Assembly: GCA_036268875.1 (NCBI GenBank)
Contig: DATATI010000043.1
Coordinates: 1-55,918 of the forward strand
Direction of reading: 5' to 3'
DNA length: 55,918 nucleotides
DNA from: Polyangia bacterium
Lineage (GTDB): Bacteria; Myxococcota_A; Polyangia; Fen-1088
The notes beneath the pieces are model-generated. The model was not told the DNA's origin, ran no database searches, and saw only the letters and a program-made list of their open reading frames with translations. Made by a program: the position numbers and the translations under genes. Numbering within the stretch: the first letter of the stretch is position 1; each line of letters starts with the position of its first letter. This document shows positions 20,753 through 55,918 of this stretch, one piece after another.

Positions 20753-22333
20753 ATGCACCCGGTTCGACAGGCGATGGTCTGCCTATTCGCGGTGTCGGTG
20801 TGCTCGGGCGCCGGTTGCGACCAGCCGCTTTCCAACCTTCCGCCGGTGCCGGAGGGTCAGTTTGGCCAGATCCAGCAGGCCGCCTGTCCGATCAACAGTC
20901 CGACCTGCATCAATCCGCTCATCGACCAGACCATCGACACCTGCACACCTTGTCTGGGTTGCAACAGCGATTCGTGCGCGACGCGGGTCTGTAACTGCGA
21001 CGGCACCTGCTCGACTACGGTCAAAATTGATGGCACCAGTTGCGACGACGGCAACAAGTGCAACGGCGCCGACAGCTGTAAAAGCGGAACCTGCAGCAGC
21101 CACGGCACCGCGGTGGTTTGCGCGGCGATCGACCGTTGCCACACGGTCGGCACGTGCACGCCGGCCACCGGTGTTTGCACCAATCCACCGCAAACGGACG
21201 GCACCAGTTGTGACGACGGAAACAAGTGCAACGGCCTCGAGACCTGCCAGAGTGGTTCGTGCGCCGCCGGCACGGCGGTGACGTGTACGGCGCTCGATCG
21301 CTGCCACACGGTCGGCACCTGTGATCCGAACAGCGGCAGTTGTTCGAATCCCGCCCAGCCGAACGGCACCAGCTGCGACGACGGCAACAAGTGCAACGGC
21401 CTCGAGACCTGCCAGGGCGGTTCGTGCAGCGCGGGCACCGCGGTCGCCTGCACGGTTCTCGATCGCTGCCACGGTGTCGGAACCTGCGCGCCCGCCACGG
21501 GGACTTGCTCGAATCCCACGCGCGCCGACGGCGTGGACTGCGACGACGGCAACAAGTGCAACGGCCTCGAGACCTGCCGCGGCGGCGTCTGCAGCCCGGG
21601 CACCGCGGTCGCCTGCACGGCCAAGGATGGATGCCACAAGGTGGGGACCTGCGATCCGGCGTCGGGCGCCTGTTCAAATCCGCTGGCACCGGACGGGACA
21701 TCGTGCGGAAACGACAACAAGTGTTCGGGCACCTCGGCGTGCAATACGGGCGTGTGCACGGCCGGCGTGGCGATCGGCTGTCCCGCCCAGGACAAGTGCC
21801 ACGGAGCGGGCAGCTGCGATGTGACGTCGGGCAAGTGTTCGAACCCGGCCCTGCCCGACGGCACCGATTGCGATGACGGCGATCCGTGCAACGGTCCGGA
21901 GATGTGTCAGCAAGGGGTTTGCGTCTCCGGCCCGCCGCTTTCGTGCGTGCCACCCGACGCGTGCCACACCGCCACCTGCAGCCAGGCAAGCGGCATGTGC
22001 CTGTACGCGGTCACCGGCAATTGCGCCGATGGCGGACTTCCCGTCGACGCTGCTGAAGACATGGGTTCCGCGGGTGACGGCGAATCTAATCCGGACACGG
22101 ACGTCACTCCCGACGCCTCCGCCAACGACGCCGGTGCGTCCGATGGATCGATCGGTGGAGGAGGCGCCGGCGGCGCCCACCCATCGGACGCGGGGGCCAA
22201 AGACGGCAGCGGCGGGAAGGGCGCAGTGATCGGACCGTGCAGTTACACTCCCGGTGATTCACCGCGCAATCCCATCGTGGTTCTAGCGGTGGTCTGGGCG
22301 GCAATGCGCCGGCGCAAGAAAAACCGGGGTTAG
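20753..22333 (+). CDS. Cys-rich tandem-repeat surface protein with MYXO-CTERM-like tail
   Basis: Exported protein of 526 residues. After a signal or lipobox-like N-terminus (GAGC near residue 23) come six repeats of 55 residues with the core DGTSCDDGNKCNGLETC, eight Cys each in most copies, suggesting a rod of disulphide-bonded modules. An Asp/Gly/Ser-rich linker then leads to a C-terminus with a Cys (CSYTPGDSPRNP), one hydrophobic helix and a basic end (RRRKKNRG). That layout matches the MYXO-CTERM surface-sorting signal of Myxococcota, where the Cys is thought to be lipidated and the tail removed. It is divergent from the HTTM gene. Confidence 0.8.
   Translation: MHPVRQAMVCLFAVSVCSGAGCDQPLSNLPPVPEGQFGQIQQAACPINSPTCINPLIDQTIDTCTPCLGCNSDSCATRVCNCDGTCSTTVKIDGTSCDDGNKCNGADSCKSGTCSSHGTAVVCAAIDRCHTVGTCTPATGVCTNPPQTDGTSCDDGNKCNGLETCQSGSCAAGTAVTCTALDRCHTVGTCDPNSGSCSNPAQPNGTSCDDGNKCNGLETCQGGSCSAGTAVACTVLDRCHGVGTCAPATGTCSNPTRADGVDCDDGNKCNGLETCRGGVCSPGTAVACTAKDGCHKVGTCDPASGACSNPLAPDGTSCGNDNKCSGTSACNTGVCTAGVAIGCPAQDKCHGAGSCDVTSGKCSNPALPDGTDCDDGDPCNGPEMCQQGVCVSGPPLSCVPPDACHTATCSQASGMCLYAVTGNCADGGLPVDAAEDMGSAGDGESNPDTDVTPDASANDAGASDGSIGGGGAGGAHPSDAGAKDGSGGKGAVIGPCSYTPGDSPRNPIVVLAVVWAAMRRRKKNRG
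21029..22018 (+). repeat. Six 165-bp tandem coding repeats
   Basis: Unit starts are at 21029, 21197, 21362, 21527, 21692 and 21857, so the period is 165 bp after a first unit of 168 bp. The best-conserved stretch in each unit encodes CDDGNKCNG. Units 2 to 4 are closest to each other; the fifth (CGNDNKCSG) and sixth (CDDGDPCNG) have drifted. Confidence 0.85.
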
Positions 22334-37438: not shown

Positions 37439-37491
37439 GTGCCGGAGACGAGACTTGAACTCGTAAGCCCGTAAAGGCGGCGGATCTTGAG
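37439..37491 (-). repeat. tRNA-Leu 3'-end fragment, probable attachment site
   Basis: Bases 37439-37470 are identical over 32 bp to the 3' end of the intact tRNA-Leu (39097-39128). The next 21 bases continue to match with a few differences through the variable arm and the 3' half of the anticodon stem-loop, including the CAA anticodon. The 5' half of the anticodon stem and everything upstream of it are missing. A copy broken at the anticodon loop is the normal scar of a tyrosine recombinase that uses a tRNA as its target. Confidence 0.8.
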
Positions 37492-37606
37492 GACGCCGTG
37501 GCTGTTGCGCCTTGTTGCGTCCGAGGCGACAAAATGGCGAGAAATTGTGGCCTTGGTGCCAGATGCCGGGCGTTCTGTTATGCCCCATGCAACACCAGGC
37601 GACCGC

Positions 37607-39084: not shown

Positions 39085-39097
39085 GGAGCTGAGAGGG

Positions 39098-39180
39098 TGC
39101 CGGAGACGAGACTTGAACTCGTAAGCCCTTGCGGGCGGCGGATTTTGAGTCCGCTGCGTATACCATTTCGCCACTCCGGC
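39098..39180 (-). tRNA. tRNA-Leu (anticodon CAA)
   Basis: The reverse strand folds as a complete class II tRNA of 83 bases. The acceptor stem is GCCGGAG with CTCCGGC, the D-arm is GCG with CGC, and the anticodon stem GCGGA/TCCGC holds loop CTCAAAA (anticodon CAA, reading UUG). The long variable arm is GCCC-GCAA-GGGC, and the T-arm ACGAG/CTCGT has TTCAAGT in its loop. CCA is not encoded. Its 3' end is the partner of the partial copy at 37439, so it is the probable integration target of a mobile element. Confidence 0.95.
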
Positions 39181-49993: not shown

Positions 49994-50366
49994 TGTAGTT
50001 GGCCACGCCTTTCCGCTGAAATCTGACCCGCCGGCGCGCACCCGTGGCCAAAACGTAGCGTGGCCAAAATTCGCGGTGGTGGCCAGAAGCGCGCAGAGAC
50101 GTCCGGCGCGGACGAAAGAAAAGCGGACCCAGGGACTTTGCCCCCCTGGGCCCGCTGATGGACCGCGGCGTCCATTCGTCTGGCGGATGAGGCCGACCGA
50201 GGCACGATAAGTGCGGTAGTTCGGTGCGTCCATTTTTCTTCCGTCCGCGCGGCGAATGGACGAAGAAACGGCTCTATTTCAGCTTTGCTGCGCCGGTTGC
50301 CGGGCGCCGTTCTTCGTGTGTCCCAGGGATTACCGGGGCCAGATCTACTGCGGTCGAATTTGTCGC
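49994..50366 (+). repeat. Left arm of the long inverted repeat
   Basis: The arm begins with the IS21-like end TGTAGTTGGCC, then several TGGCCA/TGGCCAAAA boxes within the first 110 bases, as in multi-site transposase-binding ends. A GGACCCAGGGACTTTGCCCC tract with dyad symmetry and the start of a Cys-rich small gene at 50256 follow. It ends at TTTGTCGC. Confidence 0.85.
50256..50366 (+). pseudogene. Truncated copy of the Cys-rich accessory gene
   Basis: The first 37 codons (MDEETALFQLCCAGC, then CPRDYRGQIYCGRIC) are the same as in the complete copy at 51058 on the other strand. At 50366 the repeat arm ends and the frame runs into unrelated sequence that is antisense to the second accessory gene. 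The open frame continues to 50801 but only this part is homologous. Confidence 0.7.
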
Positions 50367-50697
50367 GGAAGTCACCGACGCCACCCAGGCCCTTCGACCG
50401 ACGGCGGACCGGTCGCTCGACGACCTCGACGCTGTAGTAGACGCTCGGTTGCGGGGTGCCAAAGTCGTCGGTCAGTCCGAAGAAGGATGTACCGTCCAGA
50501 TCGGCCGCAGACACTGCAATGCGCGGAGGTCGGTCGAGCCACAGCGCCAATCCTTCGAGCAGCATCAGCGCCGCGCGCGGATGCCGGACCTGTCTCGTCG
50601 CCGGCAGCACCGCCCTCATCAGCTCGTCGTTCCCGTCGGTCACCAAGATCCGCGTTCGTGTGCCCGATAGAGACATCGTCACCGTGTACTGGCTCAT
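50367..50697 (-). pseudogene. Second accessory gene of the element, 3' end cut by the left arm
   Basis: From ATG 50697 the frame reads MSQYTVTMSLSGTRTRILVT, ELMRAVLPATRQVRHPRAAL, MLLEGLALWLDRPPRIAVSA and ends KGLGGVGDFRD. The LLEGLALW core and the GLGDFRxL end match small proteins I recall as partners of the Cys-rich protein in transposon leaders. The homology ends exactly where the left arm begins (50366), after which the frame continues by chance to 49873. The junction shares GCGAC between the two joined sequences. Confidence 0.5.
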
Positions 50698-51058
50698 CGT
50701 CGTCGCTCCCGCCGTCGGTCGCGGCCGCGCCCACCGTGGGCAGCGCCGGATCGTTCGGCGCCGTCCAGTCAGCAGCAAAGGCAAGTTTTTCGGGACCCTG
50801 ATCCGTCACGAATCGTCCCAGGGAGGCTGCGGTCGCGCGCCGCCGCGCAATGTGCGCGCGCTGGTGATCGCGGTGGTCCTCGCGACCGGCCTCGCTTGCC
50901 TGGTGGCGAGCATTCGATGCACGGCGAGCGCGCAGGCGCCCGCCGGTGCGACAAATTCGACCGCAGTAGATCTGGCCCCGGTAGTCCCTGGGACACACGA
51001 AGAACGGCGCCCGGCAACCGGCGCAGCAAAGCTGAAATAGAGCCGTTTCTTCGTCCAT
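50372..51058 (-). CDS. Cys-rich zinc-finger-like accessory protein of an IS21-type element
   Basis: Open frame of 228 residues. The N-terminal 37 residues hold C11-C12-C15, C22 and C32-C36 in a zinc-ribbon-like pattern (CAGCRAPFFVC, then YCGRIC). An Arg-rich stretch (RTGGRLRARRASNARHQASE, HRDHQRAHIARRRAT) and FVTDQGPEKLAF follow. From memory of the families, small proteins with this Cys pattern, basic middle and VTxQG end are encoded just inside the left end of some transposons ahead of the transposase. The true 3' end is uncertain because the second accessory gene starts at 50697 inside this frame; the real product may end near there. Confidence 0.55.
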   Translation of the reverse strand: MDEETALFQLCCAGCRAPFFVCPRDYRGQIYCGRICRTGGRLRARRASNARHQASEAGREDHRDHQRAHIARRRATAASLGRFVTDQGPEKLAFAADWTAPNDPALPTVGAAATDGGSDDDEPVHGDDVSIGHTNADLGDRRERRADEGGAAGDETGPASARGADAARRIGAVARPTSAHCSVCGRSGRYILLRTDRRLWHPATERLLQRRGRRATGPPSVEGPGWRR

Positions 51059-51321
51059 CCGCCGCGCGGACGGAAGAAAAATGGACGCACCGAACTACCG
51101 CACTTATCGTGCCTCGGTCGGCCTCATCCGCCAGACGAATGGACGCCGCGGGTCCATCAGCGGGCCCAGGGGGGCAAAGTCCCTGGGTCCGCTTTTCTTT
51201 CGTCCGCGCCGGACGTCTCTACGCGCTTCTGGCCACCACCGCGAATTTTGGCCACGCCTCGTTCTGGCCACGAGTGCGCGCCGGCGGGTCAGATTTCAGC
51301 GGAAAGGCGTGGCCAACTACA
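50947..51321 (-). repeat. Right arm of the long inverted repeat
   Basis: The reverse complement matches the left arm with about eight differences, for example CACTCGTGGCCAGAACGAGG in place of CACCCGTGGCCAAAACGTAG and one extra C near position 51155. Unlike the left arm, this one runs into an uninterrupted small gene. Confidence 0.85.
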
Positions 51322-53039: not shown

Positions 53040-53147
53040 ATGCCGTTCGCGAAGTTTGCTTTGAGCGGCGGCCAAGGTCGTGCGCTCCCCAAGGGTTCGA
53101 ACGGTTCGACCTGGCTGCCCATCGTCGAAGACGACTGTCGGGAATGA
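53040..53147 (+). CDS. Possible small protein upstream of the AAA ATPase
   Basis: Open frame of 35 codons (MPFAKFALSGGQGRALPKGS, then NGSTWLPIVEDDCRE) whose ATG follows GGAGAGAG at 6 bases, a convincing ribosome binding site. It ends 40 bases before the ATPase start. There is no recognisable domain. It could be a real micro-protein, a leader peptide or chance. Confidence 0.28.
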   Translation: MPFAKFALSGGQGRALPKGSNGSTWLPIVEDDCRE

Positions 53148-53187
53148 CATCCCCCCAAACGGGCGCGCCCAGCTAAGCTGCGCCAGC

Positions 53188-54170
53188 ATGGCGGCACTGA
53201 ATAGTGGCACAGACGGCGTGGACGGCGGATCAGGTTCGCCGAGTGGAAAGGTGGGCGACGTCTTTCGCGACATCCTCGATTGGAGCCCGTCGCTCGCCCG
53301 CTGGCAGAACGAACTGCTTCGCCGCGTGCTTCGCGTGAGGGAGCTCGGGGAACAAGAGATAGCCGAGTTGGCCGCGGCGGCCGTCGCTGAGACCGAGCAG
53401 CAAACTTCGATGTACCCGTTCCTGTCGACGAATGACCTTCCATCCGTAGCTGCACCGGAAAGACATAGCCTTCTCGCATCGGTGGCCAGCGTCCGAAACA
53501 TCAACGTGCTTCGGGCTGACCAAACTCTCACTTTTGGGGCCCAACTGACGGTCATATACGGTGACAACGCGTCCGGCAAGTCCGGCTATTGTCGCATGCT
53601 CAAGAAGGTTTACCGGGCTCGGGTCGTTGAAGACATTCTTGGCGACGTGCGCGGTGACTCCGCTCCGTCAGGACCGGCGGAAGCGACGTTCGTCGTAAAG
53701 GGTCCATCCGGTGCCGAGCAGCGAGTCGCATGGACGGACGGCACACCCATCTCGAACGTAGGAAGATTCGCCGTCCTGGACAGTGCTTGTTCGCTCACAT
53801 ACGTCCGCGGCGGCATCCTCGCTGTGGGGCCCGCCGGCATCGATGTGCTGGACCGCTTCGCTGCAGAATTGGACAGGGTCAAGCTACGCTTGGGCACCCT
53901 CGCGTCGCAAGTGCAGCCCTCGAAACAAAGTGTGCAGCACCTGGAGGATGACACAGAAGCCGGACGATTCGTGAAGTCGCTGTCGTCCACCACGAGTGAT
54001 GAGGCGATCACGACCTTTGCGGTGTGGAACCCGGGGCAAGAAGCAGAACTCCAGCGCCTGGAGTCAGCCCTGGTGGCGGCGAAGTCAAGCACTCCTTCGG
54101 CGCAACGCGCGGAACAGAAAGCCAAAAGTGAGGCCTTGCGCTCCCTTCGAGAGCGCGTCGCGAGCTGGAT
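53188..54170 (+). pseudogene. AAA_13-like P-loop ATPase gene truncated by an IS21 insertion
   Basis: The first 327 codons of a larger SMC/RloC-type ATPase. The N-terminal helical region (DVFRDILDWSPSLARWQNEL, LLRRVLRVRELGEQEIAELA) is followed by the ATPase start: NINVLRADQTLTFGAQLTVI and Walker A GDNASGKS (125-132) with GYCRMLKKVYRAR after it. A coiled-coil-like segment begins near residue 230 (VKLRLGTLASQV). The frame runs into TGTAGACGG, the end of the IS21 element, at 54171, so the Walker B half is lost or lies beyond the window. Relatives with YGDNGSGKSGY are often found in defence islands, in some cases with nucleases; a defence role here is inference. Confidence 0.72.
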
Positions 54171-54976
54171 TGTAGACGGCCAAGCTTCCCGTCGAAATCT
54201 GGCCAAGCTGGACGTCGTAATTTGGCCTTCTTTGGTGGAGGGGTTTGGGTTTTCTGGCGCCAGGAATCGGCGTCGATGTCGAGGATGTGGCAGTGCTGAG
54301 AAAAGCGATCGACGAGGGCGACGACGCAGGCGGCTCCTGGGAACACGGTGCCCCACTGCTTGTAGGGCAGATTTGTGGTGATGACGACGGACCTGTTCTC
54401 GTGTCGACGGAAAACGATGTTGTAGAGCAGGTCGGCGGAGCGACCATCGCAGGGCAAATATCCAAGCTCATCGACGATCAAAAGTTTGGGAGCCAGGTAG
54501 CGGTGCTTGAGGCAGCGCTCGACGGCGGGTAGTGATTCGCGGCGGAGCAGGTCGGCGAGGACGGCGGCCAGGGAGCAGAAGCGCACGGTGTAGCCCCGCA
54601 GGATGGCGGCGAGGCCGAGGTTCTGGGCGAGAGTTGTTTTCCCGACGCCGCTCGGGCCGCGGAAAAGTACATTGTCGCCGCGCTCGATGAAATCGAGAGT
54701 GCTGTACAGATTGTCGTAAAGGTTGCGGTCAATGGTCTTCGGGTGATTCCAATCGAAACGGTCGATGGTGGTGAATTTGCCGAGCGTGGCGATACGAGTT
54801 CGGGCGGCGAGATTTCTGGCCTCTCGTTCACGTCGCTCGGTCTCGACCAGTTTTTCGCAGATCTCCAGGGCGCCCAGCCGGGCGTGGGTGGCGTGCTCGA
54901 TGAAAGTCCGCAGCACGACGAGGGATGAGCGGAAGCCCAAGGAGCGAAGCTGGGTGGCAATGTCATCGCTTGGCAT
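54008..54976 (-). CDS. istB: IS21 helper ATPase IstB, reading past the element end
   Basis: AAA+ ATPase of the DnaC/IstB family that helps IstA choose and capture target DNA. The P-loop GPSGVGKT is at residues 107-114, Walker B with LLIVDELGYLP near 165-175, and ITTNLPYKQW (sensor I) follows. The start overlaps the istA stop by 14 bases, the normal arrangement. Family members are about 250 residues. Here no stop codon occurs before the element's end (about residue 268), and the frame runs 54 codons into the disrupted ATPase gene, giving 322 residues. The additional tail is not part of the family. Confidence 0.9.
   Translation of the reverse strand: MPSDDIATQLRSLGFRSSLVVLRTFIEHATHARLGALEICEKLVETERREREARNLAARTRIATLGKFTTIDRFDWNHPKTIDRNLYDNLYSTLDFIERGDNVLFRGPSGVGKTTLAQNLGLAAILRGYTVRFCSLAAVLADLLRRESLPAVERCLKHRYLAPKLLIVDELGYLPCDGRSADLLYNIVFRRHENRSVVITTNLPYKQWGTVFPGAACVVALVDRFSQHCHILDIDADSWRQKTQTPPPKKAKLRRPAWPDFDGKLGRLQSSSRRALEGSARPHFWLSVPRVAPKECLTSPPPGLTPGAGVLLLAPGSTPQRS
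54171..54230 (-). repeat. Terminal end of the IS21 element with repeated GGCCAA boxes
   Basis: On the plus strand GGCCAAG occurs at 54178 and 54212, and a related TTGGCC at 54226, about 15-35 bases apart after the outermost TGTAG. Repeated boxes of this type are where IstA binds in IS21 elements. Confidence 0.6.
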
Positions 54977-55918
54977 CGTAGCCTCCGAGATCGTGCGGAA
55001 TGACGTCGCGGTCAGGCACGCCGTCGCTGATGGCGATGTTGGGCATCGGGCGGTCGGCGGCGCGGCGATGATATTCGCAACGCACGCCGATCTGCCCTGG
55101 ATCGTGGGTGCCGCGCTCGATGGTTTCGACGATGGCCTTGGCGAAGATGACGTCGCCGTAAAGGTCGAGCATCTTGCTCGCCTGCGCCACCATGCTGCCG
55201 ATGTTGCGGCCAGCGTTCACCCAGCGTTCGATGAGGATGTCGATGTTGGGGGCGGCGGCGCGCAGTCGATCACGACCGATGGCCGGCGCTGCTCCGCGCT
55301 TGCGACGCAAGATCTCGGCCCGGTGCTCGGCAGCCTCGATCTTCTGGCGGTGTCCCCACGACCGGCGATGCTCGGCAACGACCTTTGGGCCGTCGACGAT
55401 CCGGACCAGGCGGTCGTCCGCCACGATGGTCAGCGTCTTCTCGACATGATCCGGCGGTACTGAATAGATATTGGTGTCGAAGCGCGCGAATGCGGTCTTG
55501 TCGATAAATACCGGCTCCACCAAATCGGTGGCGGGCAGCGGATCGGGCAGCGGCAAGAGGCGGGTCTGTTCCTCGGCGAGACAGTCGGCGATGGTACGTT
55601 CAGGGAAGCCTGGGTGCCGCTGCTGATGCGCGATTTCATCGATGAAAGTCAGCAGCTCTCGGTTGCCTTGCTCGATGTTGTAGATCTCGCGTCCGGCGAG
55701 GAAGCGCTCACGCAGGAAGCGGATCTTGCGCTCGACGCGTCCTTTTTCGTTTCCACGGTACGGCCTACAGAGTCGAAGCTGGACGTGTAACGCGCTCCCG
55801 AGATCGAGAAGCAACGGATGGAAGCGGACCGCATCGCCGTGTCTTTCAAGGACGACGATCTTCGGATTGTCGAAGAGCCACTGGCGAGCGCAGCCACGAA
55901 AGTACGTCGCCGCGCGGG
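54963..55918 (-). CDS. istA: IS21 transposase IstA, 5' part beyond the window
   Basis: C-terminal 317 or so residues of the DDE transposase. The end of the rve catalytic domain is visible as WLFDNPKIVVLERHGDAVRF followed by HPLL, then CRPYRGNEKGRVERKIRFLR with the catalytic Glu in NEKGRVE. After it comes the Mu-type C-terminal region (FARFDTNIYSVPPDHVEKTL, HRRSWGHRQK). The N-terminal helix-turn-helix and first two catalytic Asp residues are off the window. The frame is open to the last base. Confidence 0.92.
   Translation of the reverse strand, partial: RAATYFRGCARQWLFDNPKIVVLERHGDAVRFHPLLLDLGSALHVQLRLCRPYRGNEKGRVERKIRFLRERFLAGREIYNIEQGNRELLTFIDEIAHQQRHPGFPERTIADCLAEEQTRLLPLPDPLPATDLVEPVFIDKTAFARFDTNIYSVPPDHVEKTLTIVADDRLVRIVDGPKVVAEHRRSWGHRQKIEAAEHRAEILRRKRGAAPAIGRDRLRAAAPNIDILIERWVNAGRNIGSMVAQASKMLDLYGDVIFAKAIVETIERGTHDPGQIGVRCEYHRRAADRPMPNIAISDGVPDRDVIPHDLGGYDAKR

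What the first reader, a model, noticed from the sequence alone, without database searches (positions are those of the whole stretch)
49994..51321. Palindromic 1.33-kb element with two inverted IS21-type ends and no transposase
Two arms of about 374 bp, about 98% identical and in inverted orientation, each begin with TGTAGTTGGCC and face outward. Between them are two small genes of a kind found just inside the left end of larger transposons, but no transposase. The outer ends resemble the end of the IS21-family element 3 kb away. A unit with two competent ends and accessory genes only could be mobilised in trans, or could extrude as a cruciform. I know of no described IS21 derivative of this shape.
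Basis: partly seen in the sequence, partly recalled or inferred. Interest (0 to 1): 0.75.

Follow-up and report, generated by a model that had tools for sequence, protein, structure and literature searches.

The report
Two fused IS21 left ends, transposase-less
A 1.3-kb DNA palindrome in a bacterial genome is real, but it looks like a one-off scar left when two inverted copies of a jumping gene lost their middles and were joined, rather than a new kind of mobile element.

Summary
The palindrome is real. The arms are 49994-50366 and 50948-51321, 97.9% identical over 374 columns (7 substitutions, 1 indel). Both begin TGTAGTTGGCC and face outward, and there is no transposase. The arms are the left end, leader and gene-1 start of an IS21-type element. 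Full-length relatives elsewhere have the order left end, gene 1, gene 2, istA, istB, right end. The ends match the right end of the partial IS21 element at 54171 (27 of 35 bases), so that element or a sibling is the likely parent. Reading inward from the right, gene 1 is intact and gene 2 breaks in a conserved C-terminal motif. There, at a 5-bp GCGAC microhomology, it joins an inverted, truncated gene 1. I found no evidence that the unit moves. It occurs once in its genome, in no other of 318 genomes of the class, and has no target-site duplication, whereas 11 of 13 full-length relatives do. The arms stop exactly at the transposon ends with unrelated flanks. Best explanation (0.66): two inverted IS21 copies fused by deletion. 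Mobilisation in trans stays possible, because published IstA assays accept two left ends. By-catch: gene 1 appears dual-coding across gene 2 (CxxC motif kept in 25 of 26 elements).

The parts
49994..50366 (+). Left arm: IS21-type left end, leader and 5' part of gene 1 (truncated copy)
   Evidence: Inverted-repeat search and arm alignment
50948..51321 (-). Right arm: IS21-type left end, leader and 5' part of the complete gene 1
   Evidence: Inverted-repeat search and arm alignment
49994..50090 (+). Terminal TGTAG and TGGCC boxes at 7, 52, 68 and 87 nt from the end (putative IstA sites); mirrored at 51225-51321 on the minus strand
   Evidence: Box positions identical in both arms; GGCC boxes of the neighbouring IS21 right end at 8, 31 and 54. 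Binding by IstA is inferred.
50122..50156 (+). GC-rich hairpin of the gene-1 leader (a second copy lies in the right arm)
   Evidence: Similar hairpin roughly 70-100 nt upstream of gene 1 in most relatives; the leader folds with z = -3.6
50372..51058 (-). Gene 1, complete, 228 aa, two cysteine motifs (N-terminal knuckle and C-terminal CSVCGR)
   Evidence: ORF with stop; homologues upstream of istA in relatives
50362..50697 (-). Gene 2, truncated within its conserved C-terminal GDFRDLRQL motif
   Evidence: Comparison with C-termini of about 20 homologues
50362..50366 (.). Fusion point between gene 2 and the inverted gene-1 copy, 5-bp shared sequence GTCGC/GCGAC
   Evidence: Arm identity ends here; DNA match to the G008 parent-type element covers query 369-933 and so ends about here; sequence at the joint
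50256..50366 (+). Second gene-1 copy, first 37 codons only, then foreign sequence
   Evidence: Translation
54171..55918 (-). Partial IS21 element (right end, istB, C-terminal part of istA) cut by the contig end; likely parent or sibling of the palindrome
   Evidence: PF01695 at 2e-53; IS21_help_AAA at 6.9e-57 and transpos_IS21 at 4.6e-16, both below NCBIfam's cut-off scores; end similarity

Best explanation
The palindrome is a dead or dormant remnant of two copies of one IS21-type element (order: left end, gene 1, gene 2, istA, istB, right end). They had inserted at different sites in opposite orientation, with their right ends facing each other. A deletion, probably by illegitimate joining at the 5-bp GCGAC microhomology, removed everything from near the end of gene 2 in one copy to codon 37 of gene 1 in the other, including both istA/istB pairs, both right ends and the DNA between them. 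What remains is one complete gene 1, an almost complete gene 2, a truncated gene 1 and two outward left ends. Shown: the anatomy, the parent layout, the joint, the single copy, the missing duplication. Inferred: that there were two copies and that the event was a deletion.
For: Parent layout left end-gene 1-gene 2-istA-istB in several relatives, with exact ends and 5-7 bp target duplications in 11 of 13 full-length copies. The palindrome has no duplication, even with the ends shifted by up to 3 bp. The arms end exactly at the transposon ends and the flanks are unrelated; a simple fold-back of one copy would have duplicated its flank too. The joint lies inside the gene 2 motif GDFRDLRQL with only a 5-bp overlap. 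The arms differ by 7 bases and 1 indel, and the one change inside gene 1 is synonymous (GAT/GAC), as expected of two separately maintained copies (weak). Single copy in the genome and no other in 318 class genomes. Left-flank homology to relative G014 runs to about 26 bp before the palindrome, and the G014 sequence beyond it does not match the right flank. GC falls from about 0.63 on the left to about 0.49-0.56 on the right.
Against: No intact second copy with the same left end, and no empty site, was found. Two of 13 full-length relatives also lack a duplication, so its absence is only about a 6:1 argument. The deleted middle is gone, so two copies versus one cannot be shown directly. The flank comparison with G014 is at about 69% DNA identity and proves little. 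The GC step may be ordinary local variation.
Confidence: 0.66

Rival explanations
1. A non-autonomous unit with two left ends that is, or was, mobilised in trans by an IS21 transposase such as that of the element at 54171.
For: Both terminal 48 bp are identical and the box positions match. A related transposase lies 2.85 kb away. IstA of IS5376 joined two left ends in vitro, with about 2-fold lower activity (PMC10122671).
Against: One copy only; no other in 318 class genomes, none in plasmids or in viral contigs by exact end pattern; no target duplication.
Confidence: 0.13
2. Inverted duplication of one element's left part by template switching during replication or transposition, with later loss of the duplicated flank or a later rearrangement.
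For: A 5-bp microhomology at the joint fits template switching. IS21 elements can cause deletions next to the insertion site (ISPve1, PMC3281130).
Against: A switch within one copy would extend the palindrome into the flank. The arms stop exactly at the transposon ends, so a second event would be needed.
Confidence: 0.14
3. Assembly artefact: a fold-back or a false join of two IS ends in a draft genome.
For: The genome is in 95 contigs, and the contig itself breaks inside an IS21 copy.
Against: The arms differ at 8 positions, whereas fold-back artefacts give identical arms. The inner joint shares only 5 bp, too little for an overlap-based false join. Identical runs between the arms are at most 92 nt.
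Confidence: 0.07

Closest known systems
IS21-family insertion sequences (IS21, IS5376; here the gene 1-gene 2-istA-istB subgroup)
   Same: TG...CA ends with repeated internal boxes, accessory genes 1 and 2 inside the left end, matching right end on the neighbouring IS21 copy
   Different: No istA, no istB, no right end; two left ends; no target duplication
MITEs and mobile insertion cassettes (MICs) mobilised in trans by insertion sequences
   Same: Transposon ends on both sides, no transposase, non-transposase genes inside (MIC-like)
   Different: Normal MITEs and MICs keep one left and one right end, have target duplications and are repeated (general knowledge); this one is single with two left ends
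Foldback-type elements with long terminal inverted repeats (general knowledge, not tested against a database)
   Same: Long inverted arms around a short middle, no transposase
   Different: Not repeated in the genome, no internal tandem repeats, derived from two left ends of an insertion sequence

Membership tests
Autonomous IS21-family element | istA transposase and istB helper inside | tested here: not met
   Only gene 1, truncated gene 2 and a gene 1 fragment inside
Derivative of an IS21-family element | Ends and accessory genes match an IS21 element with istA/istB | tested here: met
   End match 27 of 35 with the right end at 54171; gene 1-gene 2-istA-istB order in relatives L037, L039, L045-L047
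MITE or MIC (mobile non-autonomous unit) | More than one copy with different flanks | tested here: not met
   One copy in own genome, no other in 318 genomes of the class
MITE or MIC (mobile non-autonomous unit) | Target-site duplication typical of the parent family | tested here: not met
   0 bp at the palindrome; 5-7 bp in 11 of 13 full-length relatives
MITE or MIC (mobile non-autonomous unit) | Ends usable by the parent transposase | not testable with these tools
   Both ends complete in sequence; two-left-end activity is known only for another IS21 member in vitro (PMC10122671)
Composite transposon of inverted IS copies | Two IS copies flanking other DNA, at least one functional | tested here: not met
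   Both copies reduced to their left parts; no foreign DNA between them

The most novel reading that the evidence does not exclude
A two-left-end, transposase-free IS21 unit that keeps an intact accessory gene 1 and can be moved in trans by a resident IS21 element: a symmetric class of IS21 parasite not described in the papers I could search.
Probability: 0.1. Interest if true: 0.55.

Novelty: new variant of a known kind. Interest (0 to 1): 0.3.

Why it matters
If the unit were mobile it would be natural support for the in vitro result that IstA can pair two left ends. As the evidence stands, it is an example of how inverted IS21 copies decay, and it points to a subgroup of IS21 elements whose two accessory genes share coding DNA. 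The dual-coding gene 1/gene 2 pair and the recurrent leader hairpin are probably the more useful leads for specialists.

Tried and rejected
Search for the whole unit or one arm in relatives, the class, plasmids and (end pattern) viral contigs: no second copy. One scan of genome contigs with gene 1 gave only a 50%-identical match. The other IS21 copies of the same genome (contigs C67, C58, C18, C49) are diverged from the 54171 element, have no detectable gene 1 or gene 2 and share no end sequence with the palindrome, so they are not parents. An exact TGTAGNNGGCCA scan of the genome gave only chance sites besides the palindrome and the 54171 end. Empty-site search: left-flank homology in G014 ends before the site and does not continue into the right flank, so it does not decide. 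Rfam matches (RRE, FinP) were far below threshold and were discarded. Gene 1 has no Pfam or NCBIfam match; gene 2 has only a Pfam hit below the cut-off (E 0.034) and no NCBIfam match. The literature search found no two-left-end IS21 derivative, but only open-licence papers were searched. A first try at handing in this report was malformed.

Full report
Observation. The window is a whole 55,918-bp contig (C43) of a 6.15-Mb genome in 95 contigs. The arms 49994-50366 and 50948-51321 form an inverted repeat of 374 columns with 7 substitutions and one 1-bp indel. The identical runs are 48, 8, 4, 36, 68, 92, 74 and 36 nt. Outside the arms the flanks are unrelated. No other inverted pair in the window comes near this length or identity.

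Nature of the ends. TGGCC boxes lie at 7, 52, 68 and 87 nt from both termini; the right end of the IS21 copy at 54171 has GGCC boxes at 8, 31 and 54. The first 35 bases of the palindrome match that right end at 27 positions, score 35 against at most 20 in 300 shuffles, and it is the best hit in the window after the palindrome itself. In a relative with defined ends (L045) the left and right ends also share a similar stretch, so the palindrome ends are best read as left ends of the 54171 element or a sibling. That copy is partial: istB (PF01695, 2e-53; NCBIfam IS21_help_AAA) and the C-terminal part of istA lie before the contig end.

Nature of the genes. Gene 1 and gene 2 have relatives upstream of istA and istB in G008 (L037), G127 (L039), G124 (L045-L047) and others. 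Full-length copies in G124 and G288 are 3299-3403 bp, and 11 of 13 have 5-7 bp target duplications. The palindrome has gene 1 complete (50372-51058, minus strand). Gene 2 is intact up to GVGDFRD, where relatives typically continue LRQL. After that the sequence is the inverted start of a second gene 1. The DNA match to the G008 element covers query positions 369-933, so it ends about where the left arm begins. The joint shares 5 bp, GCGAC. That the lost gene 2 sequence also read GCGAC is inferred from the Arg-Asp codons.

Single copy. The full unit has one place in its genome. It has no second copy among 97 relatives by arm or 318 class genomes, none in PLSDB plasmids, and the exact end pattern is absent from viral contigs. 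Metagenome contigs could not be searched.

Mechanism. If one copy had folded back by template switching, the palindrome would continue into the flank. It stops exactly at the transposon ends on both sides. So either two separately inserted copies were fused, or the unit moved after it formed. Movement should leave a 5-bp duplication; none is present even with shifted ends, while relatives show one in 11 of 13 cases. This favours fusion by about 6 to 1. The 2% divergence of the arms, with a silent change as the only difference inside gene 1, also fits two copies that diverged before fusion (weak). The left flank matches relative G014 up to about 26 bp before the palindrome, and G014 then goes elsewhere. 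The GC content falls to the right. Both are compatible with a breakpoint but weak.

Could it still move? IstA of IS5376 joined left-left pairs in vitro, with insertions bordered by 5-bp repeats; left ends alone were about 2-fold less active than mixed ends (PMC10122671). IstA-IstB structures were made with two right ends (PMC11208146). So two left ends are not a mechanistic bar. ISPve1 of the IS21 family often leaves deletions beside its 5' end (PMC3281130), which shows that IS21 events without the normal outcome occur.

By-catch. In gene 2-bearing elements the gene 1 frame continues through gene 2 in the +2 frame and carries a C..C motif (RCxVCGR type) in 25 of 26 cases. The two gene 2 third-codon positions that create these cysteine codons are T in 25 of 25, against 8.9% T at other third positions of gene 2, in DNA of about 68% GC. 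This is strong evidence for dual coding, with the caveats that the sequences are related and that the motif was used to locate the codons. A GC-rich hairpin with changing stem sequence lies roughly 70-100 nt upstream of gene 1 in most relatives, and the window leader folds at -89 kcal/mol, z -3.6. It could be an RNA or DNA control element; covariation was not tested formally.

Verdict. Real and uncommon anatomy, ordinary most likely cause, no evidence of mobility. A correction to the notebook: the first entry gave 9 substitutions; the right number is 7.

Noticed in passing
window 50372-50697 (minus strand); L037, L045-L047, L120-L146: Gene 1 overlaps gene 2 in another frame: a conserved C-terminal C..C motif of gene 1 is encoded inside gene 2, with the needed T at two gene 2 third-codon positions in 25 of 25 elements against 8.9% elsewhere. 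This suggests true dual coding in an IS21 subgroup.
   Followed up: partly
window 50106-50250 and its copy in the right arm; leaders of L008-L146: A GC-rich hairpin, often preceded by an A-rich stretch and with changing stem bases, lies roughly 70-100 nt upstream of gene 1 in most relatives; the window leader has a folding z-score of -3.6. No credible Rfam match.
   Followed up: partly
window 53080-54170: An AAA/SMC-like ATPase reading frame appears to be interrupted by the IS21 copy whose right end is at 54171.
   Followed up: no
window 54171-54976 (minus strand): The istB frame has no stop before the right end of the IS21 element and runs on into the flank.
   Followed up: no
G000 contigs C67, C58, C18, C49 (L069-L072): Other IS21 copies in the same genome, three of them on contigs of 3.5-5.1 kb, are diverged from the 54171 element and have no detectable gene 1 or gene 2.
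   Followed up: partly
L053 (G157:C570): A gene 1 copy followed closely by the C-terminal part of istB (72% identical to the window istB over 72 aa): it looks like an internal deletion derivative of a related IS21 element.
   Followed up: no
window 21001-21846: Tandem repeats with a 165-bp period, 63-75% alike, in what looks like a cysteine-rich coding repeat.
   Followed up: no
window 37439-37496 and 39097-39154: Two 58-nt direct repeats, 88% identical, with GTGCCGGAGACGAGACTTGAACTC, which look like 3' parts of tRNA genes on the minus strand (not checked with a tRNA finder).
   Followed up: no
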